NCBI GenBank assembly: GCA_964036045.1
Contig: OZ038384.1
Coordinates: 39,224,844 to 39,288,843 of the forward strand
Length of the DNA: 64,000 bases
DNA from: Eutreptiella sp. 'Long Island Sound 2002'
Taxonomy: Eukaryota > Euglenozoa > Euglenophyceae > Eutreptiales > Eutreptiaceae
Direction of reading: 5' to 3'
The translations under genes were made by a program, and so were the position numbers. Below, piece by piece: positions 5,727 through 60,958 of this stretch (positions are counted from its first letter, which is position 1; each line of letters starts with the position of its first letter). The notes under the pieces are model-generated. The model saw only the letters and a list, made by a program, of their open reading frames with translations, was not told the DNA's origin and searched no databases.

Positions 5727-6191
5727 ACCGCAACTCAAGGGGCCAAGCAACGAAGCGTGGATTGCGAGTCCCTATACCCAACTCAAGGGGCCACGCAACA
5801 AAGCGTGGATTGCGAGTCCCTAACCCCAACTCAAGGGACCACGCAACAAAGCGTGGATTGAGAGTCCTTAACCCCAACTCAAGGGGCCACACAACAAAGC
5901 GTGGATTGAGAGTCCCTAACCCCAACTCAAGGGGCCACGCAACAAAGCGTGGATTGCGAGTCCCTAACCCCAACTCAAGGGGCCACACAACAAAGTGTGG
6001 ATTGCGAGTCCCTAACCCCAACTCAAGGGGGTATGCAACAAGGCGTGGATTGAGAGTCCTTAACCCCAACTCAAGGGACCACGCAACAAAGCGTGGATTG
6101 AGAGTCCCTAACCCCAACTCAAGGGGCCACGCAACAAAGCGTGGATTGCGAGTGCCTAACCCCAACTCAAGGGGCCACGCAACAAAGCGTG
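5727..6191. repeat. 48-bp minisatellite, short array (~9.7 units)
   Basis: Direct units of 48 bp: gcgagtccctaaccccaact, then caaggggccacgcaacaaag, then cgtggatt. Each unit contains the dyad CCACGC-AACAAA-GCGTGG. Because 48 is divisible by three and the consensus lacks stops in several frames, the array produces long artefactual ORFs on both strands. Same family as 21,135-31,490. Confidence 0.95.
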
Positions 6192-36914: not shown

Positions 36915-37378
36915 TGCGGCGCTAGCGGCTGTCAACATGCACTTGCCCACAACCCTGCTAGCCGCCAGGCGCCATGCAGTCGTAGGGGACACATCCGCTC
37001 TCCTCCGCTCGGCGGGTGCCAGCGTCAAAGGTGGTGGCCAGTGACCTCAACAAGCCCCGAGGCCCTCGCGGGCGGGTCGCTCTCCAAGGCCCTAGTCCCA
37101 AGGGCCCGCTGTCAAGGTTCCGTAACCGCTACCGCCCATGCGACCCGACCAATGTTGTCGAGCAAGTGGGGTGCCCCTTCAAGCGCGAGCTGGGCTAGCT
37201 TCTCATCGGGCCGGAGACTCCCTGCGTTGGGGCAGAGAAAGTCCTGCTCCGCGGCCTAAACACCCACCACATGCAGTGCGATGTGGGGTTTGGGGAGCGC
37301 ACCTTCGCAGCGGCGGACCCGGCCGCTGTCATCATGGGCATCATGGTCATCGTGGTTCTGGTTGCCGATAAACGATCG

Positions 37379-38700
37379 CTACAGTGCCTCAAAACAGGCG
37401 ACGTAGTCGTACCCCCGGTGAAGGGCGCGCAAGCGAGGTTCTTGTGGGTCCCCAAGTGGGCATTCAGAGTGTCCCGCGCCGCGGCTTGCGTCGTGGTCCC
37501 GGGGTTGATACCCGAGACCTCGATGGCCACTTGGCAGGACGCTTGCGACCCGACCCGGGCCGGCGTGGCGGGGGCCGGGGCTATGTGCGCCGATGACCAT
37601 GGAGTAGGGGCCACAAGAGCTGGGCTCTACCAAGGTGCCGGCTGCGGGGCTGCTGGCCAGGGCATCGGGTATGATGTGTGGGTGTGCCCTGCGCGGTTCG
37701 GGGGGAGCGGGGAGGGGGGGGGGCTTCCCTAGTGGGCGGGCACGCGCGCCAGGCCGGGCGCGGGGTCGCCGGGGGCATAGCAGTGGCACCCAAGCTTGTT
37801 GGGTGGTTGCTTGTGCCCAAGCGGGCTGCGCCGACACGCCCCCCTGGTCTTTGACCGCAGCTTCGATCGCCTGGAGATCTTCCGGGTGGGCAGCCGTTGC
37901 GACTACCCCCACCATAGCCGTCCAGAAGGAGGCGCGGTCCACTGCCTGCAGCAGGGCACCGCGGATGTCTGGTGGGACAACAGTCATGCACGCTATGGCG
38001 GTGGTGACGGCGGCGAAGGGGCTTGCATCGGGGAGGGTGGCTACCAAACGCCGTCATGGTGAGGAAGTCGCCAACTTCCACCCATGCGACCCAATCGCCC
38101 ATTGACGATGCCACCACCGGGCCTTCACCCCCCAAGCGCACGGCGTTTGGAATGAGCACCTTCGCCAGTTGCTCGCCCGATTGTGTGGCTTGGAGGGCTG
38201 ACAGGATATCGAGGGCACACAAGAAGTTGGCCATGCGGGGGTACAGGTCATCCTTGACGGCGCTCAGGTGGGCTGGCGCCACCAAACGCGCCGATTCTGC
38301 CGCGTGCTGCGTGCTGCGATGGGCAATGGCGTGGCCCTCATATGGGGACCGGAGCAACAAGGGGGGCGGTGGCTACGGCTGCAGTGCATATTGGGGGGCG
38401 AGCTGGGTCGCCGCCGGGGAGTAATACGACAAGGGCACCCCGTGGCCCGGGGCTGCGAGCGGTGGGGCTACCGCAATGGGTTACACATGGGGCACTCCAC
38501 CGGAAGGCGGGGAATCGGTGCTACGGGGCTCCATCCGGGCACGCCCCCGGGCTAGGGCTAGGCGGGTTGGTGGCGCACCTTCACCACCACCAAGGCGTCG
38601 CGGACGGGGGCGAATAGGGGCCCTCCTCGCGAGGGGACCCACGGAAGGCTTTGGTCGGCCGGCGGCCCCTCTGCCACCTGATGGCCGGGGGGCTGGCCCG
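37379..38700 (-). pseudogene. Gene X, 3' part, separated by the transposon
   Basis: The minus-strand frames correspond one for one to 57,614-58,985 in the right arm (plus). They encode an Ala-rich helical protein (LYPRMANFLCALDILSALQA; VATLPDASPFAAVTTAIACM; AAVKDQGGVSAQPAWAQATT), then Pro-rich sequence and a C-terminal GYDYVACFEAL. Frame changes remain between segments in both arms, so introns or shared indels exist. The 5' part lies beyond the transposon at 45,390-46,239, so this copy is broken. Function unknown. Confidence 0.55.
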
Positions 38701-38732
38701 CCCTTGGTGCGCGTTTGAAACCCAATGTTGTT
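38701..38732 (+). repeat. Left terminal inverted repeat
   Basis: 32 bp starting CCCTTGGTGCGCG, identical to the reverse complement of 45,358-45,389. It is followed at 38,731-38,815 by GTTCC/GGAAC-rich subterminal motifs. Confidence 0.95.
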
Positions 38733-39208
38733 CCCGACTAGAATATTCCCAATGGGAACAATTCCCGCCGGAACAATCTCGTTGGGAACACCACTGGAAC
38801 AAGTGTCGCAGGCCAGAAAACCAGATCCATCACCATGAGTTTCCAAGTTTGTAAATGATGTTTTTTGTCTCCTTCTTGCATGTATAACGCGTCCAAGGCT
38901 TGTCTTTCCCATCGGGGCCATGTTGACATCTTGTGAGCCGTTGGTGCCACCTTCCACTAGGTGTACACATTTCGAACTTTTCGTATCCATTTGCAAGCCT
39001 GCTGTTACTTGTAGTTCAGACGCAGCGTTGTATGACTTTTCAACGTTGGCGTCCCCATTCTCCCGTTTGATTTGTGCATTGTGGCCATGCCTAGGGTCCC
39101 ATTTTGGTATTTGTTCCTTGCCTGAATACTCGGTGGGTCTACGGGCATCTTCCCCTAGAGGTATGCATTGCCAAATTTCGCTTCGTAGTTCATTGTTGTA
39201 GCTTCATC

Positions 39209-41080
39209 ATGCCTAGATCGCAAACCCGCGTTGCGCAACTAACCACCCACCTCGTCCATTTGGCTAGTGCTGTCAGCCTCCGGGACGGGGATCTTGTTGG
39301 GGAGCTCATAGCGGAATGGGCCATCTCCTCTCCACACGCCCGCCGCCAATTTGCGGTGGCCGTGCGCTTGGCCCAACCAAGCTGTGTACGAGAGATACAG
39401 CAGGGGGCAATCGCCAAGTACGCCTCCGAGGTGCTCCCCCCCGATGAGTGTTGCGAGCTCATCCTCAACGTGCGTGCGCCCAAATCCGCTTGGCGCACGC
39501 TCTCGGAAGTGTACACCCTCCGGGGGCTAAAGTACACCGCGACCACGGGCCTTCCATTCGCCCGTCCGATTTGCCCTGAGAGGGCTTTCCAGCAGCGCTG
39601 GCAAGATCTACTGGCCCCCTTGGAGCTGGCCCCCGCGGTGAGCACTTCGGATCCCAAGGCCACGGGCATCAGTTGGCCGTGGGCATCATGGCTGCGCTAC
39701 ATTGCTAGCCAACCCCCGTTGTGCCGCATGATCGATTGGTCGTTCCCCCTGACTTTCATTGTCAGGGGGGATGGCTACCCCTGCGCAGGCGGGGAGTGGT
39801 CCCAATTGTCTGTGTCCATCGCCAACATGGGCCTTTGGGGACGAATTCCCGCCTGTGTGTGGGTCATCGGCCTCGCAATCTGCGGGGACAAAGCGATGGC
39901 GACCCTAGCAACCCTTTGGGAAGACAATATTAAGGTGTGCCGCGCACACACCATGTTGTTCCGGCGACGTTCCGATAACTTGTTCCGGCGACGTTCCGGC
40001 GACGTTCAAGTGTTTCGTTGGAACCGCCACCGGAACAATCTGGTTCCAACAAAATTGATGTTTTTTTCTTAGGCCATCTAGGAGGTCGTGGACACCCACC
40101 GGGTGGTCTTCAATTCCCATGAGGAAGCGGCCGATGCCTGGCTCGGTGGTGATTCCCCCTGGGTGCGCCGCATTATCGGGATCACACTGGCCCCACAAGT
40201 GGGGTCACTATACAACGAGGGGATTTGGGACTCCGACGCCGCTGTGTGGCGGGGCAAAGACGTGGCCCGGACCACCGAGTCGGACCACGCACAGCGGACG
40301 TCCTTCTTGTTGGGAACACCATCGCTGAAGGCCGCAGGTTGTTCCGTGGAACCAGTGGTGGTCATTGCCCGGTGCCGCGTTGTCATGTGCATTCTGCACT
40401 GTTGCATGGCGATGGGCCGGTTGCAAATGACCAACATTGAGCGGTTGGCGGCAGAGCGGCTAGCCGGGGGCGATGAGGTGTCCCGTGCGGCGATTCAGGC
40501 GGTATTGCATGAGCATCGCACTGGGTGCCGCCTAGGCAAGGATTGTTCCCCGGATGGTGAGGAGACGTCGCGCCTGTTTGCGGCTTGGCCCGATGTTGCA
40601 TTGTTGCTGTCGGTTGGGCCGGAGGAGCCCCTCTATAGGGCTGTGATGGGGATGGCGAAGCTTTTGAAGGACCTGTACCACACCTATCAGGTGGGTACGC
40701 GTCCCCAATGCCGGGCAGCGGCAGCTGCCTTCCGGGAGCATTGTGCTCCTAGGTCCGCGTCCCATTACCTCCTGTTCCTAAAGGAGGATGCGGATCGCGT
40801 ATTGGACGACATTTGGCCGTTCGGATTGGCAATGTTCTCCAATGACATTGTCGAAAGCCTTAACCGCTTCCTGAAGCAGGCTTTCAACGAACACAGTGCC
40901 CGGGGCGGTGGCCGGCAAACGGCTACTGGGACCGCCAGCTGCGGTCGCTCGCAGGCATCCATTGATTCGGACGCCGACGCCCTGCGGCAAGTGTTGCAAT
41001 GGGTTTTCTTGTACTTTCACATTCATCTCCACCAACATGATGCTGTTCGACATGTGCCTTGTGTTCCCAGGGCTGCACTA
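39209..41080 (+). CDS. Transposase-like protein, two exons, intron 39,935-40,081
   Basis: Exon 1 runs from the ATG at 39209 (MPRSQTRVAQLTTHL) to 39934. A phase-0 GT-AG intron of 147 bp ends at 40081, and exon 2 opens GAG GTC GTG. The junction reads LWEDNIK|EVVDTHRVV. Acidic residues that could form a DDE-type site are in RGDGYPC (exon 1), CGDKAM (exon 1) and FSNDIVESLN (exon 2), the last followed by NEHSARGGG; this assignment is a guess. Other notable segments are YTATTGLPFARPI and ILHCCMAMGRLQ. The 3' end is uncertain: the frame stays open into the next gene, while splicing to a cryptic acceptor near 41,070 would end it at about 41,080. Diverged fragments of the same N-terminal domain lie at 60,149-60,576 and 60,969-61,460. 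Its position as the first gene inside perfect TIRs supports a transposase role. Confidence 0.65.
39935..40081 (+). other. Intron 1 of the transposase gene, fold-back motif inside
   Basis: GT (gtgtgccg) to AG (gccatctag). Most of it is the fold-back: TTGTTCCGGCGACGTTCC at 39,958 and related inverted GGAAC copies to about 40,050. Without splicing, the in-frame TAG at 40,079-40,081 would stop translation. Confidence 0.7.
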
Positions 41081-41141
41081 GAGACCACCCCCTCTGCACC
41101 ACCCCCGTTCCTCAGCTCTCTTCTTTCTTCTGCTCCTATCC

Positions 41142-44100
41142 ATGGCCGCGCCCGTCAGCGCAGATATGATGCAAATGATGTTGGCTCTTCTGAAGGCCAC
41201 CAAGAATATGCAGGTTTGCGGGTTTGGGCTTGGGTGGGGGTTTGGGCTTGGGTTTGGGCTTGGGGCTGGGTGTGGGTTTGGGCTTGGGCCTGGGTGTGGG
41301 TTTGGGCTTGGGTGTGGGTTTGGGCTAGGGGTTGGGTGTGGGTTCGGGTGCGGGTTTTGGTTTGGGCCGAGGTTTGGGTTTGGGTTTTGGTGTATGCTTT
41401 GGCGCGCTTTGCGCGCAGTGGAAATCAGTGCGTTGGGTTTGTGTGTCCCTGCCTGCCCTGCTCCCCCCGCTCCCCCCTGTGTCCCTTTTGCTCTTTGCTC
41501 TTTAGGAATTTGATGATTTGTTGTTGAGGGGAAGGGGAAAACCCAAGAACCCCCAGTGATTATTTGTGCCCCAAGCCCATAAAGGGGCTAGGAATCTTTG
41601 TTGTCCAGGGGAAGGGGAAAACCCAAGAACCCCCAGTGATTATTTGTGCCCCATGCCCATAAAGGGGCTAGGAATCTTTGTTGTCCAGGGGAAGGGGAAA
41701 ACCCAAGAACCCCCAGTGATTATTTGTGCCCCATGCCCATAAAGGGGCTAGGAATCTTTGTTGTCCAGGGGAAGGGGAAAACCCAAGAACCCCCAGTGAT
41801 TGTTCGTGCCCCATGCCCATAAAGGGGCTAGGATTCTTTGTAGTGGATGCCCCCCCCCCCCCCCCACGGGGCCGTAGTGCACGCAGTGCGCCCTGTGCGC
41901 GCGCCGAACTGTGCCTATTTTCCATTGTTCCGGCGACGTTCCAACAACCCGTTCCGGCGACGTTCTGGCGACGTTCCAGCGGCCACTGGAACGTCGCCAG
42001 AACGTCGCCGGAACGGGTTGTTGGAACGTCGCCGGAACAAGGTGGCTGGGTAGGGTTGGCCTCTCTCCGGTATCCTTGTCTGCAGGACGGGATGACCGAG
42101 ACCGAGGCCCTGGGGGCAGCACTGGCTGCACCACCCCCGCCAGCCCCACTGGGGGCACAGGGGGCCACGCGCTCCGAGCCACGCAGCAGCTCTGCGCTGG
42201 CTTCGCCAGCCCCTCCCCCACCTCAGGGCGCTCCCAAACATCCTCCGTGGGCAACCCCCGCTCACCGGCCATCGGAGCCGCCACGGCCTGCCCCACAAGG
42301 GGCCGCGCCAGTTGCGCCTCTCCAAGCGCATCGCCCCCAGTCACCCGAGCCCTCGACTGGGAGCTCAATGAGTAACGTGGGGGGGGTTCGGGAGCACGCC
42401 GTGGTTCTGGGGGAGCTGCAAGAGGCGAGGGGCAATGTTGAAAGCCTGCGCCGCCGGGTGAAAAAATGGTCTGCGAAATTGACGGAGTGCCGGCGGCGTG
42501 GGGACATCACCGGGGGGGGGGCACGCGGGCGAGAGGGTTCTCAAGGGGAACCGGCGGGTAAGGGAGGCGCAGAAGGCGGTGGAGGTGCTTGAAAGGGAGT
42601 TGCAGGGCATGGGTGGGGGGGTGCAGGTGAAACAGGAAGGGGGTGACAACGACGATGACATTGTGGAGCTGGGTGAGGTGGTGGTGGATGAGAAGGATGA
42701 AGAGCGGAGGGCTAACCCGGGGGTTAAGAGAGAGGAAGAAGAGGGGGGGGGGGGGATGGGGATGGGGATGGGGATGGGGATGGGGAGGGGGAGGGGGATG
42801 ACGCCGGCGGCGTCTTGCGCATTACGGATTGGATGCGCAACCGACTTGGCTCATCCCTGGCAGCAAAAGCTGCCAAGTTTTCCTGGACAAGGGAGATGGT
42901 AGGCCCCAACCGCCCCCCCCTGGACGCCTGTGTCCTACGAGCCCCCCACCCCACCATTTACACGCTCCGTTGGCTGCTGCAGCGCTTCCTGCACAAGCAA
43001 CTGCACTGCAAGGAGCAGCGTGATTGCCGCTGGCGCCGGGAGGAGGGCTCCGCGCCAGGGGGGGTCCCGGTGTCCTGGGTGACCAGGCCGGGGACAGGGC
43101 GCACGGCACCCCTCCCCAACGACTGGCTCCCCAGCAAGGCGCAGGGGGGCAAATTTCTAACCGCGGGCTCTGTCAGTGTGGGGAGTTGCCATTGGCACCT
43201 CATTTTTGAGCGTTGGGCCGACCACGGCCTTGGCGAGGTGAGGGCGACTCCCCGCAAGGACACCGTCCTCTTTCGGGCCAATTGGACCCGAATCCTCCGC
43301 GACGGCATCTATGTGGTCGAGGACGAAGGCAAATACCATGGCTTCGTCGTTGGCCAAACGCTGTCGCGGCCTGGCGCCCTACGCGGCAAGTGCGAGGACA
43401 ACCCGCAGCGGCACCAACAATCTGCCGTTCGGGCAGTGCTAGCGGAACGTGAGCGCCCGCCGACCTCGCAATTGCGGCAAGCGTTGGCGGCGATCAAGGA
43501 GAACGTGGACACGCGCGTGCGGGTATGCCCCCCCGCAAGCATGTCCACATGGCCAATAGGGCCCAAAAATGCACATGGTTGGCGTGCCGGTGCATTGTTC
43601 AGGCGATGTTCCAAACAGTTTGTTCTGGCGACGTTCCAATCTGTCACCAAAAAACGTTTGAAAAGTCTTTTGAACGGCGCCGGAACAGCTTATTGGAACG
43701 TCGCTGGAACACTCATCCTGGCTATCCTCCATGTAGGTGGAGGACATCCAGGTCAACCCTTCGGACCCGCGCGCCGTTCGGGTGATCCTTCGTTGGCCAG
43801 GAAGCGATCCCCGGCCCATCTATTTGGGCACGTTGCTTCAGCAGTTGCACTTGCAGCCCGTCGCCGTGCTCGAGTTCCTCACGGCCATGATGGACTACGT
43901 GGCAGCCCGCGGCAGCGTTCTCGCGACGCGCATCGAGGGGTGGGGCAGCCTTGGCGACATGTCCCCAGCGCCGCCGCACTGCCAACAAGTGGCCGCAGAG
44001 GCCCCCGCCCCGCCCGCGTGTGCACCGCCCGTGCAACCCCAACCCCGGAACCCCCACCCAGCCCCCCAAACAGCACCCAAACCCAAACCCAAACCCCAAC

Positions 44101-44758
44101 GCCCCCCCAAGCGGGAACCCAAGAGCGCCCCCAAACAAGCCCCCCAAAAAAGGAAGAGGCTCCCGGGGGAGTCCTCCAGCGAGGAGTCGTCCAGCGACTC
44201 CTCAACGGACTCCTCCTCGGAGTCCACCACCGACTCCTCGGCGTTCGAGGAGCCCCAGCCCCGCCCCCCGGCCAAGGAGCCCACCAAACCCCCTCGCAAG
44301 GCTCCCAAGAGAGCCGCGCCCCCCCAACCCAAGGCCCAGCCCCCCCAACCCCAACCCAAGGCGAAGCCAAAGGCAAGAGGGGGGGGGGGTGCAAATACAA
44401 AGCGGGGGAGCAAGTGTATGTAGTTTTTCGGGACAATGGGCAGTGGGGGATCGAGCAGGGCAAAGAGGCCCTTGCCGCGGGTGGCCCCCCCGGGGTTGGG
44501 GAGACGTGGATCGCCTTCCCCAAAGACCCCGAACTCTTCGCCATCCCGAGAGCGTCGGTTTGGAAAACCAAGACGCAGGCGAAGAAGTTCCTCGCCAAGA
44601 TGATGGCGGCCGAGGAGGAGGACAAGGAGGACGTCGCGGACGCGGACGAGGAGGTGGAGGAGAGCAACGACGGGGACGGGGACGGGGGAGACGAAGGGGA
44701 TGGACCGGGGGCAGGTTTGGGTGCTACCGGGGCTAACCGGGATGGGGGCGTCGGGTAA
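41142..44758 (+). CDS. Transposon accessory protein, three exons, three homopolymer frameshifts
   Basis: Exon 1 is 41142-41213 (MAAPVSADMMQMMLALLKAT...MQ), exon 2 is 42086-43522 and exon 3 is 43737-44758. Both introns (872 and 214 bp) are GT-AG and phase 0. Order of regions: Pro/Ala-rich N-terminus; a coiled coil (NVESLRRRVKKWSAKLTE ... AQKAVEVLERELQ); an acidic stretch; a globular region (ITDWMRNRLGSSLAAKAAKF ... DGIYVVEDEGKYHGFVVG); after exon 3, a helical segment, Pro/Lys-rich and Ser/Asp-rich linkers; a small domain (GEQVYVVFRDNGQWGIEQGK); and an acidic C-terminus. The frame shifts exactly at G runs 42,512-42,521, 42,743-42,755 and 44,379-44,389, with protein character continuing in the new frame each time. 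No family recognised. A DNA-binding or complex-assembly partner of the transposase is plausible. Confidence 0.6.
41214..41395. repeat. G-rich TTTGGGC-type minisatellite
   Basis: About 25 variants of (g)tttgggct and tgggtgtggg. Only the G strand is on the coding side, so the intron RNA could form G-quadruplexes. Confidence 0.8.
41531..41850. repeat. 80-bp direct repeat, four copies
   Basis: Copies start at 41,531, 41,611, 41,691 and 41,771 (gaaggggaaaacccaagaac...), nearly identical. They differ by, for example, ccaagccc/ccatgccc and attattt/attgttc. Confidence 0.95.
41925..42040. repeat. Perfect 55-bp-arm palindrome of TTCCGGCGACGTTCC iterons
   Basis: Arms 41,925-41,979 and 41,986-42,040 are exact reverse complements with a 6-bp loop. 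Each arm holds three iterated GTTC(C/T)(G)GCGACGTTC words. Confidence 0.97.
43523..43736 (+). other. Intron 2 of the accessory gene with fold-back motif
   Basis: 214-bp phase-0 intron (gtatgccc ... atgtag). From 43,598 to 43,711 it holds TTGTTCAGGCGATGTTCC and TTCTGGCGACGTTCC on one side and GGCGCCGGAAC and GGAACGTCGCTGGAAC on the other, a diverged version of the 41,925 palindrome. The splice restores VDTRVR|VEDIQVNPS. Confidence 0.65.
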
Positions 44759-44764
44759 GAGGTC

Positions 44765-44925
44765 GAAGGGGTGGAGGGGGAAAGGATGGAGGTCGAAGGG
44801 GTGGAGGGTGAAGGGGTGGTGGGAGAAGGGGTGGAGGGTGAAGGGGTGGAGGGTGAAGGGGTGGTGGGTGAAGGGGTGGAGGGTGAAGGGGTGGTGGGTG
44901 AAGGGGTGGTGGTCGGTGAGGGAGA
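44765..44925. repeat. 15-bp G-rich minisatellite
   Basis: About ten units of gggtgaaggggtgga/ggt directly after the accessory-gene stop. The plus frame continues as a Glu/Gly/Val repeat to 44,998, so the gene could extend here if 'gggtaagag' at 44,753 is a donor. Confidence 0.85.
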
Positions 44926-45099
44926 TGGGGGGGATAGTGGGGCGGGTGACAAGAGTTCGGGGGCGCCCGCCGGGCCCCCGACCACGCAGGACTTTTAGGT
45001 GAGAACAAGAGACTAACCCGATGGGCCCCCGGGGGCACCCTACACAACAATGTATGTTACCATTTTACCCTTCCTTGTGCTTTGCTCTTGTTGTAGAGT

Positions 45100-45170
45100 G
45101 CTTGTTCCGGCGACGTTCCAATAACTTGTTCCAGCGGTGTTCCAATGGTGTTCTAACAAAAACTGTTTTT
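45100..45170. repeat. Right subterminal fold-back-type motif
   Basis: CTTGTTCCGGCGACGTTCCA followed by a second diverged copy (ttgttccagcggtgttcc), then a partial GGAACAATTTGG near 45,342. It mirrors the left subterminal block. Confidence 0.7.
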
Positions 45171-45357
45171 GAAAACAAGTTTTTTTCACGTGGCAACGCG
45201 CCGGGCAACAAATATGAGCATACCACCGGGGACCCCCAAGGCTAGCAAACAACATATTTTGCCACCATGTACGGGTAGGCTTGGTTGGGGGGTAAATAAA
45301 TTTTGAACTTTTTTTGGTCCGGCCAGATAGCCTAGAACATTGGAACAATTTGGCCAA

Positions 45358-45389
45358 AACAACATTGGGTTTCAAACGCGCACCAAGGG
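45358..45389 (-). repeat. Right terminal inverted repeat
   Basis: Reverse complement of 38,701-38,732, 32 of 32 bases. Confidence 0.95.
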
Positions 45390-45782
45390 CGGCGGCAAGG
45401 GCCTCTTAAGGTTACCGCTGGGCCAGCGCGGCCGCTCCCGCCGGCAGCCCCATCCTGTGGCGGGCTGCTCCGCCTGGGCGGCGCTCGGCTTTGCCGGCTT
45501 TGAGAGCTCCGTACTCGCCTTCACCGGGCATAGGGAGCCGGATATTAGGTCCGTCACCTGTGGTGGGGCGACCGGGCAATCGGCGCGGAAGCCGTGGGCT
45601 TCGGTGCCCCCCGTCCATACCGGCGACCTGGAGCTACAGGCCGCCGGAGCGGCCGTCATGGCGACACAGAGCCACAACCAATGCAGGGAGAGCAGGGGGC
45701 CCGCTAGGCTCACCGATTGGTTGAGGAGCCAGCGGAGGTAGTAGGGATCACGGTTCCGCTTATCCCAGTGCCTTTGCTGCAT
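45390..45782 (-). pseudogene. Gene X, middle part, cut by the transposon
   Basis: The minus-strand frame starts MQQRHWDKRNRDPYYLRWLL and contains a hydrophobic segment (LAGPLLSLHWLWLCVAMTA), then Ser/Ala/Pro-rich sequence. It runs into the transposon end at 45,389. The right-arm homologue (57,230-57,754) has TAG in place of the Trp of QQRHW. Sequence continuity with 38,700 is restored if the transposon is removed. Confidence 0.5.
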
Positions 45783-45867
45783 AGTCTCCCAGGGGATGCC
45801 AGGGGATGTGCCTCGGGGCTAACCCCGCAAATTGGAGCCCGTGCGCACCTCCTTTGTGGACGACACC

Positions 45868-46239
45868 CTAGCGGTAGCTGTCCACCACGTCCGTAATGAA
45901 CGTCCACAAGCCCCCGGGCCACCGTGTAGTGAGTTGTGCACTCTCGGTCCGGGTCTTTTTCCCCTTGAGGATGGAGAGCTGCATGCCTAGGGTGCAGGCG
46001 ATCCTTTCCGTGAGGGGTACACCGACGACTTCGGTGGCCCTGGGCCAGTGCTGCATGGAAGCCAGGAGGGCGTCCTCCACGAGGGCCACACAGTCAATGC
46101 GGCCCACCTGCTGTGGGTGGGCCTTTAGGTGGAGCCGTTTTTTAGCGAGGGAAAGGGTGCGGAATTCTGCCATGCTCCCTGAGGTGTGGCAGATCGCACA
46201 CGGCGCCCCGCGCCGCACACGTCCCTCCACGCACGCCAT
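45868..46239 (-). CDS. Gene X 5' ORF (left copy), 123 aa
   Basis: ATG-to-stop frame nearly identical to 56,774-57,145 (one residue difference seen, T for A near the C-terminus). It has a CAICHTSGSM pair of Cys near the N-terminus and a helical, basic remainder (LSLAKKRLHLKAHPQQVGR; LTERIACTLGMQLSILKGKK). Conservation of the full ORF in both arms supports coding. It may be a separate small gene or the last exon of a gene starting upstream. Function unknown. Confidence 0.5.
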   Translation of the reverse strand: MACVEGRVRRGAPCAICHTSGSMAEFRTLSLAKKRLHLKAHPQQVGRIDCVALVEDALLASMQHWPRATEVVGVPLTERIACTLGMQLSILKGKKTRTESAQLTTRWPGGLWTFITDVVDSYR

Positions 46240-46739
46240 GCCCGCATGGCCGAGTCCCCCTTCGCGGTCCCGTTGGCCGCTCGGTCGCTGGGCCTCCCGG
46301 CTCAGGGCGGGGACACTTGCCGCAACCCTGCAGTGACATCCGCAACGACCGCCACGTCTCAGTTATAGCCTGTCCGCTTGAGCCGAGACGGAGGGGGCTG
46401 CGAGGGTGGAGGCAGGCACCCCCAGTTGTAGCCTTTCCGCGTGCGCCGTTCGGCTGCCGGTGTTGTGGAAGCCAACACCGTGTGCCTCGCCCTTAGGCGG
46501 CCCTAATCAAGTGCATCTTTCAGACCCTTTGAGACCCCGGATGTCAGTTTTCAAAATCAGAATTTTGGAGGAAGCTTTGTCCTACTCGTTGCATGCCATA
46601 CCCTTGTCAATGTTTCTTTGTTTGTTGAGTATCATGTTGCGTGCTATGTTGTGTTGTACGGGCTGTTGTGAGCTGGACAGTTTTGAACTACACAGTCTTC
46701 GCATGATGCATGAGGCCCTAGTAAAACAGTGAAACGGAA

Positions 46740-46835
46740 AAAGAATGAGCTTTGGCTTATTCTTTTGGCCAAACCTGGAGATACACCCTTGTATATGTGT
46801 GTCCTTAGAAAACAATGAGGCAAAGCTCATTCTTT
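46740..46835. mobile_element. 96-bp MITE-like element (left arm)
   Basis: 15-bp perfect inverted termini AAAGAATGAGCTTTG / CAAAGCTCATTCTTT. Present at the equivalent place in the right arm (56,178-56,273). No target duplication was established. Confidence 0.55.
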
Positions 46836-47066
46836 TGGCCAAGTGTTTGTTTGCACACCCCATATAGTGCCCACATAGCAGCCTGCTTGTGAGCTACACG
46901 AGACGTATCACATTTGCCGCGGCAACCTATGAAAGGCTTCCACCACCAAGTTGCAAGGCTAGCACATGCATGATATTCTTGACGGGCTATGAGCTATCGG
47001 CGGTGCATTGGGCTATGGACATTGGCAGGGTATGTGTTTTCATTATTCCTGCGTTGTCATTGTCCA

Positions 47067-49584
47067 CGTGCTTACTTACCTGTAGATCAAGCCCCTTTCT
47101 TTGCCTGTTTGGTGATCAAGTCTAGCTTGTTGCTGACATTATGGATGCAACGCCGTTCGTCACCCTCGTGGCTGGCAACACATACGGGACCAAGGATGAT
47201 TTTCTGGATGCTGCTAATTCTTGGGGTCATATGGCCGAGTTTTTTTTTTCCTTTCCTTTGTCACTTCGTTTAAACAGAAATACCCGCCCCACACTCAAGA
47301 TTTTTCTTAGGCAACTGAGGCTGTTGCGTAGCGGAAGCGCACAGTTAGGTGATTGGTTCCAGCGGCTCAAGAGGCTTATAATTTGTGCCGTGTGATGTTG
47401 TTGCGTTGTGGTCCTCGTGCTAACTTGTTGCGTCACGACGAGGAAGTTGCTCCCACTCGGAGCGTTCCACGCAAGCTAGCACGCTCTGGTTTATGTGCCC
47501 CACGTGCACCGTCTCTGCAACTAGGGCACAGGGATGTGCTGCAGCTTTGTGGCCCCTTATGAAAGGGACTGTATTTGTTCTATGATTTGATATTTTCTAT
47601 TTTGCCGGTTTGACCCCACCCCACATGAGTCAAACACGTCACTTAATAGTATGGCAATTGCTGTAGCTTTTGTTAGCAAGGTAATTAAGATTTTGTGGAA
47701 TTTCCATCCCTTCCCACACTACGAGCTTCTCCTACCAGGCGGGCAAGTTGTTGACTACCACTCCGCTGGTCGTTATGTCAGCACTGTTTGACCTTAGAGA
47801 AGATGAAATACCCCCCCCCCTTCCAATACATCCGTTGCCCGTTGCATGTTCGACGAACGGCAGTGCACGGCACCCAATGGCATCTCAATACGCTTTGAGG
47901 ACTTCAGTCAGGAACTCAGTCACATCTGCTTGGATTAGCTTTGTGTGAAATGTAGGACTACACGTCCCGTGTGCTCCCCATACTCATTGAAGAAACGATA
48001 CACTATAGTATCAAGAAGATGACACATAGTGTTTCATACCATGAATACAATATGCGTCACAAGCTTTTTCGAACCCCCCTCCCCCCACTGTACGGCATAT
48101 GGCACCCATGCAAGTACACCGTCATTGTCACATACTGCCTTTTTTTCCCATTGATGGTGGCATTTGGCCATGGTATTCAGGCACTGGATGTCCCGGTGTA
48201 TGCATTCCCCAAGGTGATCTTTTGGAGCGTATGTTCGTGCGGTTCTCTGTCTGTTAGTTCATTAACTTTTTCCTCGTGTACTGTGCAGAATTCAACAATA
48301 GCTGGACGATCCCACTACTACGGACCCGCATGAGGCAATGTACATGACTGTTCGGAGGGCAGGCCTCATCAAAGCGGAAGTTACCATGGTATGCCCCCCC
48401 CCCCCCCCATGGCAAAGCTCAGTTGTCAGTGCCAGCTTTGTGGCTTGCGCTTTGTGGCCTACTTGCCTCACAAGACAATGTCTGGAGGACCTAGAGGCCG
48501 CTGTATCAACTGGTCAATCATACCGATAATCCAATATCCGTAGCACTGAGGTCGTGCACCGGAAAAAAAACAAGGTATTTCAGCCCCCTTGCTTTGAGCA
48601 TTTCGCATTTCAATGATCCATGGCTCATTGGTGCCAGCTGCAAATCCGGAGACCTGACAATCACGGGCCTAAAGTGCACCTTGGGAATGTACCGGTATCA
48701 GGCAGAGAAAATTTGCATCTATCCAGGATCCGAAAGTGCATTAACGGCAGGCTTGGCTAAGCTCGTGAGGGGCTTGAAGCGCAATAGGCAACGAAAGCTG
48801 ATTTTCATGCATCCTGAAAACCCATTGCTACATCCCAGTAGAAGTATGTGTGCAACTCACCTCACAGGCTCGAGGGTGTGTGGAACAGGCTCGAGGGCGT
48901 CTGGAACAGTCATTATACCCCACCCCCTCCTGTTGATACCACGAATGCCTGAGGAACCGGTGGAGTTGCGACGCCTCGTGCAACCATCCGTAGTGAAATA
49001 TCATGTGGGAAGATGGATAGCGCAGCACGAGGACGACTACCCACCCTGGGAGTCAATCAAGAAAGCACTGATTTGGGAAGGAGCAGAATGGAGTAGCTTC
49101 CGGTGCATCCTAGCAAGACTTGTGGTATACCTTGAGGTGGAAACCAGTGACAAGGTTGCACACACGGTGCATGTTGAAGGACACATTTCTCGTGATGGGG
49201 AACCGATCGAGGGACCACAAGTGATGTTCGTCCACATGGTGAAGCGCGCACTGCCGTAGGCCTTCACGAACCATTGCTTTCAAATGGTGTGCTTTGCAAT
49301 TTGTCACGGTGCTATTTTATCGTGCATCGTTTACAAAATTAGTGAGCCATGGCTCGTTCTGAGACCCGACCCTGCTTGGTTAGTGCTTGAAAAGGCCTGT
49401 TGTTGTCCTGCAGATCTTTGTCGAATCAGAATAAGACGAGGAGTTCTACCCGCACCTGCATGCTTACCATGAATGGAAAGAAATTCAATTTGTTGTCGGG
49501 TTTCCGGAAAAGCTCACTGTGAAAGTGCCTAGTTACTTGAATGTTGATTAGGGTGCTGTGATGTCGCCAACGACGGTTGGCCTG
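47067..49584 (+). CDS. Gene Y (left copy), multi-exon, unknown function
   Basis: Exon-like plus-strand segments in order: 47,141-about 47,250 (MDATPFVTLVAGNTYGTKDD); 47,366-47,562 (AYNLCRVMLLRCGPRANLL); about 47,760-47,940 (SALFDLREDEIPPP; frame disturbed at a poly-C run); 47,971-48,229 (LPILIEETIHYSIKKMTHSV ... VYAFPKVIFWS) with a GTATGT donor; 48,303-48,388 (LDDPTTTDPHEAMYMTVRRA) with a GTATGC donor; about 48,419-48,534 (LSCQCQLCGLRF); 48,600-48,840; and about 48,870-49,259 (QPSVVKYHVGRWIAQHEDDY ... GPQVMFVHMVKRALP). No domain recognised. Three copies in the window suggest a multicopy family. The Gln codon before AEKICIYP is TAG in the right arm, so this copy is the better preserved. Confidence 0.45.
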
Positions 49585-49779
49585 CTCGGCCTGTTGATAA
49601 AGTGTTTAGGTTTGTGCCCGAAGCACCATGACAGAGAGAACTCCGAAGTGCCTAGTGACCTGACTTGGATTCTGATTTACACTAGTCAGCCTGGTCTCCC
49701 TTTTCACTGCGCCGCGCTGCTGGAACTTCTTACTGTTGGAGTGTTATGCATAGGCCCTAGAGTTGAAAGTTCTTAGTCT

Positions 49780-53046: not shown

Positions 53047-53299
53047 CTTCCCACACTACGAGCTTCTACTACCCAAGTGGGCAAGTTGTTGACGACCACT
53101 CAGCTGGTCTTTATGTCAGCACTGCTTGACCTTAGAGAAGATGAAATACCCCCCTCCCCCCTCCAAATACATGCGTTGCCCGTTGCATGTTCGACGAACG
53201 GCAGTGCACGGCACCCAATGGCATCCCTTTACGCTTTGAGGACTTTAGTCAGGAACTTAGTCACATTTGCTTGGGTTGGTATTAGGTTTGTGTGAAATG
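53047..53299 (+). pseudogene. Third copy of gene Y (part 2)
   Basis: Continues the copy at 50,884-51,522 after the 1.5-kb insertion, corresponding to 47,716-47,955 (SALLDLREDEIPPS...). It stops exactly where the right arm begins. Confidence 0.65.
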
Positions 53300-53691
53300 C
53301 AGGCCAACCGTCGTTGGCGACATCACAGCACCCTAATGAACATTCAAGTAGCTAGGCACTTTCACAGCGAGCTTTTCCAGAAACCCGACAACAAATTGAA
53401 TTTCTTTCCATTCATGGTAAGCATGCATACTGCCGGAGTCATACAAGTTGATGGCAAGCCACTTCTACCCATCACAAGACTGAAATCCACTTACCTATGT
53501 CTTAGTTGCCTTGCTTTCCACCGCACGACCCAAAATACAAATGGAACAGCAAGCCCGAAGTCCCTGGCGAACCGTTGGGTGCGGGTAGAACTCCTCGTCT
53601 TGTTCTGATTCGACAAAGATCTGCAGGACAACAACAGGCCGTTTCAAGCAGTAACCAAGCAGGGTCGGGTCTCAGAACGAGCCATGGCCCA

Positions 53692-55880
53692 CTAATTTTG
53701 TAAACGATGCACCGATAAAATAGCACCGTGACGAATTGCAAAGCACACCATTTGAAAGCAACGGTTCTTGAAGGCCTGCGGCAGTGCGCGCTTCACCATG
53801 TGGACGAACATCACTTGTGGTCCCTCGATCGGTTCCCCATCACGAGAAATGTGTCCTTCAACATGCACCGTGTGTGCAACCTCGTCACTGGCTTCCACCT
53901 CAAGGTATAGCACAAGTCTTGCTAGGATGCACCGGAAGCTACTCCATTCTGCTCCTTCCCAAATCAGTGCTTTCTTGATTGACTCCCAGGGTGGGTAGTC
54001 GTCCTCGTGCTGCGCTATCCATCTTCCCACATGATATTTCACTACGGATGGTTGCACGAGGCGTCGCAACTCCACCACTTCCTCAAGCGTTCCTGGTATC
54101 AACAGGAGGGGGTGGGGTATAATGACTGTTCCAGACGCCCTCGAGCCTGTGAGGTGAGTTGCGCACATGCTTCTACTGGGATGTAGCAATGGGTTTTCAG
54201 GATGCATGAAAATCAGCTTTCGTTGCCTATTGCGCTTCAAGCCTCTCACGAGCTTTGCCAAGCCTGCCGTGAATGCACTTTCGGATCCTGGATAGATGCA
54301 AATTTCCTCTGCCTAATACCGGTACATTCCCAAGGTGCACTTTAGGCCCGTGATTGTCAGGTCTCCGGAATTGCAGCTGGCACCAATGAGCCATGGATCA
54401 TTGAAATGCGAAATGCTCAAAGCAAGGGGGCTAAAATACCTTGTTTTTGTTCCGGTGCACGACCTCAGTGCTACGGATATTGGATTATCGGTATGATTGA
54501 CAAGTTGATACAGCGGCTTCTAGGTCCTCCAAACATTGTCTTGTGAGGCAAGTAGGCCACAAAGCGCAAGCCACAAAGCTGGCACTGACAACTGAGCTTT
54601 GCCATGGGGGGGGGGGGGGCATACCATGGTAACTTCCGCTTCGATGAGGCCTGCCCTCCGAACAGTCATGTACATTGCCTCATGCGGGTCCGTAGTCGTG
54701 GGATCGTCCAGCTATTGTTGAATTCTGCACAGTACACGAGGAAAAAGTTAATGAACTAACAGACAGAGAACCGCACGAACATACGCTCCAAAAGATCACC
54801 TTGGGGAATGCATACACCGGGACATCCGGTGCCTGAAGACCATGGCCAAATGCCACCATCAATGGGAAAAAAAGGCAGTATGTGACAATGACGGTGTACT
54901 TGCATGGGTGCCATATGCCGTACACTGGGGGGAGGGGGGTTCGAAAAAGCTTGTGACACATATTGTATTCATGGTATGAAACACTATGTGTCATCTTCTT
55001 GATACTATAGTGTATCGTTTCTTCAATGAGTATGGGGAGCACACGGGACGTGTAGTCCTACATTTCACACAAAGCTAATCCAAGCAGATGTGACTGAGTT
55101 CCTGACTGAAAACCTCAAAGCGTATTGAGATGCCATTGGGTGCCGTGCACTGCCGTTCGTCGAACATGCAACGGGCAACGGATGTATTGGAAGGGGGGGG
55201 GGGTATTTCATCTTCTCTAAGGTCAAACAGTGCTGACATAACGACCAGCGGAGTGGTAGTCAACAACTTGCCCGCCTGGTAGGAGAAGCTCGTAGTGTGG
55301 GAAGGGATGGAAATTCCACAAAATCTTAATTACCTTGCTAACAAAAGCTACAGCAATTGCCATACTATTAAGCGACGTGTTTGACTCATGTGGGGTGGGG
55401 TCAAACCGGCAAAATAGAAAATATCAAATCATAGAACAAATACAGTCCCTTTCATAAGGGGCCACAAAGCTGCAGCACATCCGTGTGCTCTCGTTGCAGA
55501 GAAGGTGCACGTGGGGCACATAAACCAGAGCGTGCTAGCTTGCGTGGAACGCTCCGAGTGGGAGCAACTTCCTCGTCGTGACGCAACAAGTTAGCATGAG
55601 GACCACAACGTAACAACATCACACGGCACAAATTATAAGCCTCTTGAGCCGCTGGAACCAACCACCTAATTGTGCGCTTCCGCTACGCAGCACCCTCAGT
55701 TGCCTAAGAAAAATCGTGAGTGTGGGGCGGGTATTTCTGTTTAAACGAAGTGACAAAGAAAAGGAAAAAAAAACTCGGCCATATGACCCCAAGAACTAGT
55801 AGCATCCAGAAAATCATCCTTGGTCCCGTATGTGATGCGAGCCACGAAGGTGACGAACGGCGTTGCATCCATAATGTCAG
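53692..55880 (-). pseudogene. Gene Y (right copy), nonsense-mutated
   Basis: Same exon order as the left copy on the opposite strand: MDATPFV exon near 55,880-55,770; AYNLCRVM exon 55,650-55,452; EDEIPPPPSNTSVARCMFDE exon 55,266-55,075, intact here because the poly-C length differs; LPILIEETIHYSIKKM exon 55,042-54,780; and the final exons to about 53,744. The codon before AEEICIYP is TAG (54,315-54,313) where the left arm has CAG, so this copy would be truncated. Confidence 0.5.
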
Positions 55881-56177
55881 CAACAAGCTAGACTTCATCA
55901 CCAAACAGGCAAAGAAAGGGGCTTGATCTACAGGTAAGTAAGCATGTGGACAATGACAACGCAGGAATAATGAAAACACATACCCTGCCAATGTCCATAG
56001 CCCAATGCACCGCCGATAGCTCATAGCCCATCAAGAATATCGTCCATGTGCTAGCCTTGCAACTTGGTGGTGGAAGCCTTTCATAGGTTGCCGCGGCAAA
56101 TGTGATACGTCTCGTGTAGCTCACAAGCAAGCTGCTATGTGGGCACTATATGGGGTGTGCAAACAAACACTTGGCCA

Positions 56178-56273
56178 AAAGAATGAGCTTTGCCTCATTG
56201 TTTTCTAAGGACACACATATACAAGGGTGTATCTCCAGGTTTGGCCAAAAGAATAAGCCAAAGCTCATTCTTT
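56178..56273. mobile_element. 96-bp MITE-like element (right arm)
   Basis: Same inverted termini as 46,740-46,835, so it was present before the arms duplicated. Confidence 0.55.
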
Positions 56274-56773
56274 TTCCGTTTCACTGTTTTACTAGGGCCT
56301 CATGCATCATGCGAAGACTGTGTAGTTCAAAACTGTCCAACTCACAACAGCCCGTACAACACAACATAGCAGGCAACATGATACTCAACAAACAAAGAAA
56401 CATTGACAAGGCTGTGGCATGCAACGAGTAGGACAAAGCTTCCTCCAAAATTCTGATTTTGAAAGCTGACATCCGGGGTCTCAAAGGGTCTGAAAGATGC
56501 ACTTGATTAGGGCCGGCTAAGGGCGAGGCACACGGTGTGGGCTTCCACAACACCGGCAGCCGAACGGCGCACGCGGAAAGGCTACAACTGGGGGTGCTTG
56601 CCTCCACCCTTGCAGCCCCCTCCGTCTTGGCTCAAGCGGACAGGCTATAGCTGAGACGTGCCGGTCGTTGCGGATGTCACTGCAGGGTTGCGGCAAGTGT
56701 CCCCGCCCTGAGCCGGGAGGCCCAGCGACCGAGCGGCCAACGGGACCGCGAAGGCGGACTCGGCCATGCGGGC

Positions 56774-57145
56774 ATGGCGTGCGTGGAGGGACGTGTGCGG
56801 CGCGGGGCGCCGTGTGCGATCTGCCACACCTCAGGGAGCATGGCAGAATTCCGCACTCTTTCCCTCGCTAAAAAACGGCTCCACCTAAAGGCCCACCCAC
56901 AGCAAGTGGGCCGCATCGACTGTGTGGCCCTCGTGGAGGACGCCCTCCTGGCTTCCATGCAGCACTGGCCCAGGGCCACCGAAGTCGTCGGTGTACCCCT
57001 CACGGAAAGGATCGCCTGCACCCTAGGCATGCAGCTCTCCATCCTCAAGGGGAAAAAGACCCGGACCGAGAGTGCACAGCTTGCTACACGGTGGCCCGGG
57101 GGCTTGTGGACGTTCATTACGGACGTGGTGGACAGCTACCGCTAG
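56774..57145 (+). CDS. Gene X 5' ORF (right copy), 123 aa
   Basis: ATG-initiated frame MACVEGRVRRGAPCAICHTS... to the TAG at 57,143-57,145; see the left copy at 45,868-46,239. A CxxC-type Cys pair is present. Both the start and the stop are kept in the two arms. Confidence 0.5.
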   Translation: MACVEGRVRRGAPCAICHTSGSMAEFRTLSLAKKRLHLKAHPQQVGRIDCVALVEDALLASMQHWPRATEVVGVPLTERIACTLGMQLSILKGKKTRTESAQLATRWPGGLWTFITDVVDSYR

Positions 57146-57229
57146 GGTGTCGTCCACAAAGGAGGTGAGCACGGGCTCCAATTCGCGGGGTTAGCCCCAA
57201 GGCATATCCCCTGGGAGACGATGCAGCAA

Positions 57230-58985
57230 AGGCACTAGGATAAGCGGAACCGTGATCCCTACTACCTCCGCTGGCTCCTCAACCAATCGGTGAGCCTAGC
57301 GGGCCCCCTGCTCTCCCTGCATTGGTTGTGGCTCTGTGTCGCCATGACGGCCGCTCTGGCGGCCTGTAGCTCCAAGTCGCCGGTATGGATGGGGGGCACC
57401 GAAGCCCACGGCTTCCGCGCCGATTGCCCTGTCGCCCCACCACAAGTGACGGACCTAATATCCGGCTCCCTGTGCCTGGTGAAGGCGAGTACGGAGCTCT
57501 CAAAGCCGGCAAAGCCGAGCGCCGCCCAGGCGGAGCAGCCCGCCACAGGACGGGGCTGCCGGCGGGAGCGGCCGCGCTGGCCCAGCCGTCACCTTAAGAG
57601 GCCCTTGCGGCCGGGCCAGCCCCCCGTCCATCAGGTGGCAGAGGGGCCGCCGGCCGACCAAAGCCTTCCGTGGGTCCCCTCGCGAGGAGGGCCCCTATTC
57701 GCCCCCGTCCGCGACGCCTTGGTGGTGGTAAAGGTGCGCCACCAACCCGCCTAGCCCAAGCCCGGGGGCGTGCCCCGATGGAGCCCCGTAGCACCGATTC
57801 CCCGCCTTCCGGTGGAGTGCCCCATGTGTAACCCATTGCGGTAGCCCCACCGCTCGCAGCCCCGGGCCACGGGGTGCCCTTGTCGCACTACTCCCCGGCG
57901 GCGACCCAGCTCGCCCCCCAATATGCATTACAGCCGTAGCCACCGCCCCCCTTAGTGCTCCGGTCCCCATATGAGGGCCACGCCATTGCCCATCGCAGCA
58001 CGCAGCACGCGGCAGAATCGGCGCGTTTGGTGGTGCCAGCCCACCTGAGCGCCGCCAAGGATGGCCTGTACCCCCACATGGCCAACTTCTTGTGTGCCCT
58101 CGGTATCCTGTCAGCCCTCCAAGCCACACAATCGGGCGAGCAACTAGTGAAGGTGCTCATTCCAAACGCCGTGCGCTTGGGGGGTGAAGGCCCGGCGGTG
58201 GCATCGTCAATGCGCGATTGGGTCGCATGGGCGGACGTTGGCAACTTCCTCACCATGGCGGACATGACCCACCGGCTATGTGGCTTTGGCGTTTGGTAGC
58301 CACCCTCCCCGATGCAAGCCCCTTCGCCGCCGTCACCACCACCATAGCGTGCATGACTTTTGTCCCACCAGACATCCGAAGTGCCGTGCTGCAGGCAGTG
58401 GACCGCGCCTCTTTCTGGATGGCTCTGGTGGGGGTAGTCGCAACGGCTGCCCACCCGGAAGATTTCCGGGCGATCGAAGCTGCGGTCAAAGACCAGGGGG
58501 GCGTGTCGGTGCAGCCCGCCTGGGCACAAGCAACCACCCAACAAGCTTGGGTGCCACTGCTATGCCCCCGGCGGCCCCGCGCCCGGCCTTGCGCGCGTGC
58601 CCGCCCACTAGGGCAGCCCCCCCCCGCCCCCCGCTCCCCCCGAACCGCGCAGGGCACACCCTGCACCTCGCGTCATACACGATGCCCTGGCCAGCAGCCC
58701 CGGCCACGCCCCCTAGCCCCGCAGCCGGCCCCTTGGTAGAGCCCAGCTTTTGTGGCCCCCACTCCATGGTCATCAGCGCACATAGCCCCGGCCCCCGCCA
58801 CGCCGGCTCGGGTCGGGTCGCAAGCGTCCTGCCAAGTGGCCATCGATGTCTCGGGTATCGACCCCGGGACCATGACGCAAGCCGCGGCGCGGGACACTCT
58901 GAATGCCCACTTGGGGACCCACAAGAACCTCGCCCGCGCGCCCTTCACCGGGGGTACGACTACGTCGCCTGTTTTGAGGCACTGT
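57230..58985 (+). pseudogene. Gene X body (right copy), uninterrupted by the transposon
   Basis: Frames in order: 57,239-57,754 (NRDPYYLRWLLNQSVSLAG, hydrophobic segment, Pro/Arg-rich end); 57,955-58,299 (AHRSTQHAAESARLVVPAHL ... DWVAWADVGNFLTMA); 58,290-58,600 (WRLVATLPDASPFAAVTTT); 58,830-58,985 (SCQVAIDVSGIDPGTMTQAA ... GYDYVACFEAL). A TAG at 57,236-57,238 replaces the Trp codon of the left arm. The transposon-free target site is at 57,612-57,613. Ala-rich helices dominate; no family recognised. Confidence 0.45.
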
Positions 58986-59446
58986 AGCGATCGTTTATCG
59001 GCAACCAGAACCACGCGGTGATGCCCATGATGACAGCGGCTGGGTCCGCCGCTGCGAAGGTGCGCTTCCCAAACCCCGCATCGCACTGCATGTGGTGGGC
59101 GTTTAGGCCGCGGAGCAGGACTTTCTCTGCCCCAACGCAGGGGGTCTCTGGCCTGATGAGTAGCTAGCCCAGCTCGCGCTTGAAGGGGCACCCCACTTGC
59201 TCGACAACATTGGTCGGGTCGCATGGGCGGTAGCGGTTACCAAACCTTGATAGCGCGCCCTTGGGACTAGGGCCTTGGAGAGCGACCCGTCCGCGAGGGC
59301 CTCGGGGCTTGTTGAGGTCACTGGCCACCACCTTTGACGCTGGCACCCGCCGAGCGGAGGAGAGCGGATGTGTCCCCTACGACTGCATGGCGCCTGGCGG
59401 CTAGCAGGGTTGTGGGCAAGTGCATGTTGATAGCCGCTAGCACCGC

Positions 59447-60650: not shown

Positions 60651-60958
60651 CAATCAATTTTTCGAGGTTCATATTAGATTCATTGTTCTGTCGGCGTGAA
60701 TATCTGCGAACTATTACAGATCAACCTCAAGAAATGAGCGCAAAAACGAAAGCGAAAGGAAACCCCCGAAGACTGGCAAGTTTTTGGACCATATTGTGGC
60801 TACCGGGGCCATTTCCTTATCCCCGCATACATCCAGCCCAATCACCAATAGGTAGGCAGGTGTGCGGGCCCGTCCGCCGTGGTTGAGGAGCCCAATGGAT
60901 AGTTGGGTCCAACTTTCACCAACGCAGGGGTAAGCATCCCCCCGGAGGAGGAAAGTGG

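What the first reader, a model, noticed from the sequence alone, without database searches (positions are those of the whole stretch)
38701..45389. Complete, apparently young DNA transposon of an unrecognised type, with its empty site in the same window
Seen: 32-bp perfect TIRs, matching CG dinucleotides outside both ends, and two co-oriented intron-containing genes. The inverted-repeat partner lacks the element at 57,612-57,613. Removing the element restores the partner sequence apart from one C/G difference next to the target. Identical TIRs imply recent insertion. Inference: a two-gene autonomous element (transposase plus coiled-coil partner) that I cannot place in a known superfamily.
Basis: partly seen in the sequence, partly recalled or inferred. 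Interest (0 to 1): 0.92.

Follow-up and report, generated by a model that had tools for sequence, protein, structure and literature searches.

The report
RAG1-fold transposon of unlisted lineage
The window holds one of hundreds of copies of a jumping DNA element whose cutting enzyme is predicted to share the fold of the antibody-gene recombinase RAG1, but which matches no transposon superfamily I could test it against.

Summary
Window 38,701-45,389 is a 6,689-bp DNA transposon with perfect 32-bp TIRs (5'-CCCTTGG...), CG on both sides, and an empty site in the inverted-repeat arm. The 2.28-Gb genome has 308 + 307 TIR hits, 0 for the reversed control. Of 22 copies with both ends, 19 carry an identical 2-bp target duplication of varying sequence.

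Gene 1 is most likely a DDE transposase. Pfam, NCBIfam and PDB sequence searches did not place it. A predicted model of a family member matches RAG1 and HzTransib first (Foldseek ranks 1-13, best E 2.2e-7). D, D, CxxH and E are conserved; the C(2)C zinc motif of CACTA/Transib/RAG1 occurs in 1 of 44. A related young family in the same genome (transposase 33% identical; TIR hits 250 + 254) also has 5'-CCCT..AGGG-3' ends and 2-bp duplications (4 of 4). This points to a separate lineage near RAG1/Transib.

Corrections: the window copy has an in-frame stop in gene 1, so it is probably not autonomous; identical TIRs do not date it. Repbase could not be searched.

The parts
38699..38700 (.). left target-site duplication CG
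38701..45389 (+). whole element, 6,689 bp
   Evidence: TIRs, TSD, empty site; copies elsewhere mostly 95-98% identical
38701..38732 (+). left terminal inverted repeat, 32 bp
38733..39000 (+). left subterminal region; GGAACA/TGTTCC 5 times in the first 300 bp (0.3 expected)
39209..39934 (+). gene 1 (transposase) exon 1, holds the first catalytic D (motif RGDGYP)
   Evidence: open in copy L015
39935..40072 (+). gene 1 intron, 138 bp, GT..AG, with GTTCCGGCGACGTTCC repeats
40073..41080 (+). gene 1 exon 2: second D (GGDSPW), CxxH (CILH), SPDGEE, catalytic E (DIVESLN); 3' end of the gene not defined (frame open to 41,527)
40079..40081 (+). in-frame stop in the window copy; the 8 other aligned copies that cover it are open there. 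It also forms an AG that, if used as acceptor, would skip it in frame
41142..41213 (+). gene 2 exon 1 (MAAPVSADMMQMMLALLKATKNMQ)
   Evidence: the same stretch follows gene 1 in P0005 and, diverged, in P0010
41214..42085 (+). gene 2 intron 1 with GGGTTT-like array, 80-bp x 4.1 tandem array and an inverted pair of GTTCCGGCGACGTTCC arrays
42086..43522 (+). gene 2 exon 2: Pro-rich, coiled-coil-like and central region; frame changes at G runs in this copy and in the majority reading
   Evidence: 150 scored matches to the central region in the genome
43523..43736 (+). gene 2 intron 2, GT..AG
43737..44998 (+). gene 2 exon 3: basic Pro/Lys region and acidic C terminus, stop TAG 44,996-44,998 (frame change near 44,380)
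45090..45357 (+). right subterminal region; GGAACA/TGTTCC 4 times in the last 300 bp (0.2 expected)
45358..45389 (-). right terminal inverted repeat, 32 bp
45390..45391 (.). right target-site duplication CG
57612..57613 (.). empty site (CG) in the other arm of the inverted repeat

Best explanation
The element is a cut-and-paste type DNA transposon. Gene 1 makes a DDE transposase with an RNase H-like core and a helical insertion like those of RAG1 and Transib. Two or more subunits would bind the 32-bp ends, helped by the repeated GGAACA/TGTTCC sites just inside them, cut the element out and join it to target DNA with a 2-bp stagger, which leaves the 2-bp duplications. Gene 2 would be an accessory DNA- or chromatin-binding partner, comparable in role to TNPA of CACTA elements. 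It belongs to a lineage with 5'-CCCT..AGGG-3' ends, CxxH and 2-bp TSDs but no C(2)C + H(3-4)H zinc motif, and I can place it in no named superfamily. Shown: ends, TSDs, copy families, conserved residues, predicted fold. Inferred: catalysis, excision, role of gene 2, role of the repeats. The window copy is probably moved only in trans.
Against: The model's beta part is low in confidence (pLDDT block means 41-76 over residues 1-100) and its best Z (9.9) lies under the 13 that the tool warns of for helical parts; the whole-length match has rmsd 7.2. E is seen in only 22 of 30 rows (many are decayed copies or wrongly joined gene models). RAG1 and Transib carry the zinc motif and this family does not. 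Three of 22 copies have unequal flanks. Gene 2 of the window's family and of the young family show no significant BLASTP match, so a common partner gene is not shown. No excision footprint or transcript was seen.
Confidence: 0.83

Rival explanations
1. [quoted passage not shown]
For: TSD of 2 bp lies in the clade's 2-5 bp range and PlavakaA makes 2-bp TSDs (PMC12730594, passages); RAG1/Transib fold match; two gene products plus subterminal repeats as in CACTA (PMC2613891, passages).
Against: C(2)C in 1 of 44; H(3-4)H in 12 of 43, 6 of these at one site after E; ends CCCT..AGGG; no convincing Pfam hit in the 50 members scanned.
Confidence: 0.3
2. It belongs with the C/DxxH superfamilies (hAT, P, MuDR, Kolobok, Dada) and the RAG1 match reflects a shared helical insertion.
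For: CILH between the second D and E, C in 47 and H in 46 of 50; the C/DxxH motif is reported for these five (PMC10045372, passages) and its H is in the Hermes active site (PMC4763223, passages); Hermes and P element also match the models.
Against: TSDs are 2 bp; hAT makes 5-8 bp (PMC12730594, passages), the others longer than 2 (recalled). Hermes scores far below RAG1 (E 1e-2 against 2e-7).
Confidence: 0.2
3. Gene 1 is a passenger and the element is moved by an unrelated transposase encoded elsewhere.
For: Copies of 1.2-1.3 kb that keep only part of gene 1 exon 1 exist (L009 with TSD, L036 with TIRs but unequal flanks), so these at least must have moved in trans or been deleted later.
Against: Gene 1 relatives sit between CCCT..AGGG ends with 2-bp TSDs in two families 33% alike; conserved D, D, E and a transposase fold.
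Confidence: 0.05

Closest known systems
RAG1 / Transib transposase
   Same: Predicted fold: RNase H-like core with large helical insertion before the catalytic E.
   Different: No C(2)C and H(3-4)H motifs; 2-bp TSD instead of Transib's 5 bp (recalled); other ends; no sequence match.
CACTA/EnSpm and Plavaka (CMCT clade)
   Same: 2-3 bp TSD (PlavakaA 2 bp), two gene products, repeated subterminal motifs.
   Different: Ends CCCT..AGGG, not CACTA, CA..TG or TGT..ACA; zinc motif missing; no Pfam match.
hAT, P, MuDR, Kolobok, Dada (C/DxxH group)
   Same: CxxH between second D and E; helical insertion.
   Different: TSD length; CxxH lies about 80 residues after the second D here, closer in Hermes (recalled); lower structural scores.
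Tc1/mariner
   Same: 2-bp TSD.
   Different: TSD is not TA-specific; helical insertion; no match of TIRs or protein known to me.

Membership tests
CMCT clade (CACTA, Mirage, Chapaev, Transib, Plavaka, ESTA, Lanisha) | C(2)C and H(3-4)H between second D and last E | tested here: not met
   C(2)C 1 of 44; H(3-4)H 12 of 43, at scattered places or after E; definition from PMC12730594 (passages)
CMCT clade (CACTA, Mirage, Chapaev, Transib, Plavaka, ESTA, Lanisha) | 2-5 bp TSD | tested here: met
   2 bp in 19 of 22 copies
CMCT clade (CACTA, Mirage, Chapaev, Transib, Plavaka, ESTA, Lanisha) | 5'-CA..TG-3' ends in most cases | tested here: not met
   CCCTTGG..CCAAGGG; CCCTAGTG.. in the young family
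CMCT clade (CACTA, Mirage, Chapaev, Transib, Plavaka, ESTA, Lanisha) | transposase fold as in RAG1/Transib | tested here: inconclusive
   best Foldseek and VIA matches, but a model of middling confidence
Plavaka (PlavakaA) | 2-bp TSD and TGT..ACA ends | tested here: not met
   TSD fits, ends do not; definition from PMC12730594 passages
Transib | 5-bp TSD (recalled) | tested here: not met
   2 bp
C/DxxH group (hAT, P, MuDR, Kolobok, Dada) | C/DxxH between second D and E | tested here: met
   C 47 of 50, H 46 of 50
hAT | 5-8 bp TSD | tested here: not met
   2 bp; hAT range from PMC12730594 passages
Tc1/mariner | TA target duplication | tested here: not met
   CG, CC, AT, TG, TA, TC, CA, GA seen
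KDZ (Kyakuja, Dileera, Zisupton) | 7-8 bp TSD (Kyakuja 7, Zisupton 8; Dileera not looked up) | tested here: not met
   2 bp; definition from PMC12730594 passages
DDE/D transposase in general | three catalytic acidic residues in an RNase H-like fold | tested here: inconclusive
   conserved D, D, E and predicted topology; no assay
any Repbase superfamily | sequence match to Repbase transposases | not testable with these tools
   Repbase not held; no transposase model among the Pfam hits

The most novel reading that the evidence does not exclude
This is an undescribed superfamily of eukaryotic DNA transposons, still or very recently spreading in its host, whose transposase branches near the root of RAG1/Transib: it has the RAG1-type helical insertion and the CxxH motif of the hAT/P group but not the zinc motif, and so may link the two large groups of eukaryotic transposases.
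Probability: 0.4. Interest if true: 0.75.

Novelty: new variant of a known kind. Interest (0 to 1): 0.55.

Why it matters
Groups of eukaryotic cut-and-paste transposases are recognised by two motif sets, C/DxxH and C(2)C + H(3-4)H, and by TSD length. This lineage mixes them: RAG1/Transib-like fold, CxxH, no zinc motif, 2-bp TSD. If confirmed it would help to order the deep branches around the ancestor of RAG1. It also offers a natural system with dozens of near-identical copies with open frames (36 of 42 listed rows with the same 506-codon frame) for biochemical work.

Tried and rejected
Pfam and NCBIfam scans, PDB sequence searches with single sequences and profiles: nothing convincing; the few weak names (Ectatomin, Keratin head, 60S L3, Galectin-1 and so on) come from one or two members or from low-complexity pieces. 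The idea that GTTCCGGCGACGTTCC is a general intron signal of the host was rejected: 593 + 610 exact hits in 2.28 Gb (control 1 + 2), grouped in the 100 listed places much as the element's own copies are, and none outside the element in the window at up to 3 mismatches. A codon-position test of the copies was uninformative apart from gene 1 exon 1 (substitutions 68, 50, 110 at positions 1, 2, 3): the copies decay one by one. The 11.9% divergence of L009 I take for a misalignment of a 1.3-kb copy (it is 97-98% identical to the window copy). Gene 2 of the window's family against the young family: no significant BLASTP; the young family's gene 2 tail does match a piece fused to a relative's transposase, P0084 (E 5e-12). 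Rfam on the window: no match at gathering score. Naming the host failed. On a published description: searches (listings and starts of abstracts, plus passages of four papers) showed none that I recognised; the library lacks most subscription journals, and Repbase was not searched.

Full report
WHAT IS THERE. The element spans 38,701-45,389. Its first and last 32 bases are perfect inverted repeats, flanked by CG. The window also holds a large inverted repeat (arms 36.9-49.6 kb and 53.3-59.4 kb). The element interrupts one arm only; with it left out the arms align through at 95.6% identity (165 mismatches and gaps in 5,906 columns), and the empty site differs from the rejoined flank by one base near the target. 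The window copy is about 1.0% from the majority of copy ends (10 of 1,040); the arms differ by 2.8% in substitutions, about 1.4% per arm. Insertion after the duplication fits these figures and is the simpler reading, but they do not prove it: loss from the other arm is not excluded.

THE FAMILY. The genome looks eukaryotic (2.28 Gb, 2,205 contigs, genes with introns); no tool named it. The 30-bp TIR core has 308 forward and 307 reverse hits at up to 3 mismatches and none for the reversed control. From the 100 listed hits I fetched 10 plus/minus pairs; one (L018) ran past the fetched stretch. The 9 complete ones plus the window copy all have identical 2-bp flanks: CG, CC, AT, TG, TA, TG, TG, TC, CA, AT. 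Eighteen further ends on contig C1 without a listed partner were fetched: 12 had a second TIR within 10 kb at up to 4 mismatches, and 9 of these 12 had identical 2-bp flanks. L025 and L035, a duplicated pair, differ by one base, and L036 does not match. L032 had only a doubtful second end (9 mismatches, flanks unequal) and was set aside; L019, L029, L030, L031 and L033 had none. In sum 19 of 22. Sizes run from 1,230 to 8,186 bp; the short ones are internal deletions.

GENE 1. Exon 1 (39,209-39,934), a 138-bp GT..AG intron and exon 2 (from 40,073) join in frame. The window copy has an in-frame stop at 40,079-40,081; the 8 other aligned copies that cover the codon are open there. Of six copies translated, L015 is open through the conserved region, L018 and L017 have stops or a shift, and L010, L011 and L012 lose the frame in exon 2. 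The stop in the window copy also makes an AG that could serve as an in-frame acceptor, so loss of function is likely but not certain. A database of 5.8 billion proteins gave 12, 50 and 102 matches in three searches (in each only about 8,000 candidates were scored), nearly all from large ENA contigs without names; one of them, P0053, is encoded at 100% identity in this genome, so that set includes the same or a very close organism. Short contigs of P0060, P0061 and P0072 may show relatives elsewhere. In a 50-row alignment of these relatives the first D is kept in 14 of 15, the second D in 35 of 36, C and H of CxxH in 47 and 46 of 50, and E in 22 of 30, gaps left out.

GENE 2 AND THE REPEATS. 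Gene 2 starts at 41,142; its first exon is seen after gene 1 in P0005 and, diverged, in P0010. The majority reading has a Pro-rich part, a coiled-coil-like stretch (by eye), a central region, a basic region and an acidic tail ending at 44,998; it changes frame at G runs, in this copy (one extra base at 42,512) and in the majority. Its central region has 150 scored matches in the genome (of 1,332 candidates). GGAACA/TGTTCC is enriched in both 300-bp ends (5 and 4, about 0.3 and 0.2 expected; 0 of 200 shuffles), in the gene 1 intron (3; 1 of 200) and in gene 2 intron 2 (3; 0 of 200). It is not significant in gene 2 intron 1 (2; 38 of 200), is also raised in gene 1 exon 2 (5; 0 of 200), and is not enriched in the flanks (intron borders there were a few bases off the final ones). 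GTTCCGGCGACGTTCC has 1,203 exact hits genome-wide. I read these as binding sites for an element protein; that is inference, modelled on TNPA and CACTA subterminal repeats (PMC2613891, passages).

A SECOND, YOUNG FAMILY. P0053 as query gave 108 matches (107 scored of 8,375 first-look candidates). Of the rows listed, 42 stand at 60% identity with nearly equal scores; 36 of them have the same open frame of 506 codons and 41 have no internal stop. Two such loci are 99% identical over 4.6 and 2.5 kb. Their ends are CCCTAGTGACCCCTTTTGCACACC, and in 4 of 4 copies examined the flanking dinucleotides agree: TT, TC, TC, AG (L037/L039, L038/L040, L041/L042, L043/L044; L038's left end differs at two bases). 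This TIR has 250 + 254 hits at up to 2 mismatches with no control hit; 36 plus/minus pairs under 15 kb stand among the first 100 listed, 0.8-7.4 kb long. Its transposase is 60% identical to P0053 and 33% identical to that of copy L015 of the window's family over 366 columns, with RGDG, GGDSPW, CILH, SPDGEE and DIVESLN all aligned. So ends of the form CCCT..AGGG and a 2-bp TSD hold across strongly diverged transposases.

PLACEMENT. CMCT transposases share C(2)C and H(3-4)H between the second D and E, CA..TG ends in most cases and 2-5 bp TSDs, PlavakaA having 2 bp (PMC12730594, passages). Here C(2)C is in 1 of 44 and H(3-4)H is not conserved. [quoted passage not shown] This family has CxxH, but with a 2-bp TSD and a RAG1/Transib-like fold. 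It works like a DDE cut-and-paste transposon; membership in a named superfamily was not met, or could not be settled, for each one tested. Repbase was out of reach, so an existing entry cannot be excluded.

Noticed in passing
G000:C24:18777800-18787000 (L037), G000:C10:25535000-25544200 (L038) and other places: A very young family of the same transposase lineage: 42 listed rows at 60% identity to P0053, 36 with the same open 506-codon frame.
   Followed up: partly
L038 with L040: The right part of the young element, including its right TIR, is repeated head to tail (a second 2.5-kb unit at 99% and the start of a third), as if ends had been amplified.
   Followed up: no
window 5609-6292 and from about 21032 onward: Large tandem array of a 48-bp unit (220 overlapping copies counted, 30 listed).
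   Followed up: no
window 36916-49585 and 53299-59446: Inverted repeat of several kb, arms mostly 94-99% alike, that holds the empty site.
   Followed up: partly
window 59868-61740: Smaller inverted repeat with arms 86-88% alike and similar outer ends, possibly a foldback element.
   Followed up: no
window 41220-41391 and 41517-41841: A GGGTTT-like array and an 80-bp unit repeated 4.1 times lie inside the predicted first intron of gene 2; shifts of 80 bp in the matches suggest that the number of units varies between copies.
   Followed up: partly
L025 and L035 (C1:98.00 and 98.02 Mb): Two near-identical copies about 19 kb apart with the same unequal flanks, apparently a segmental duplication.
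   Followed up: no
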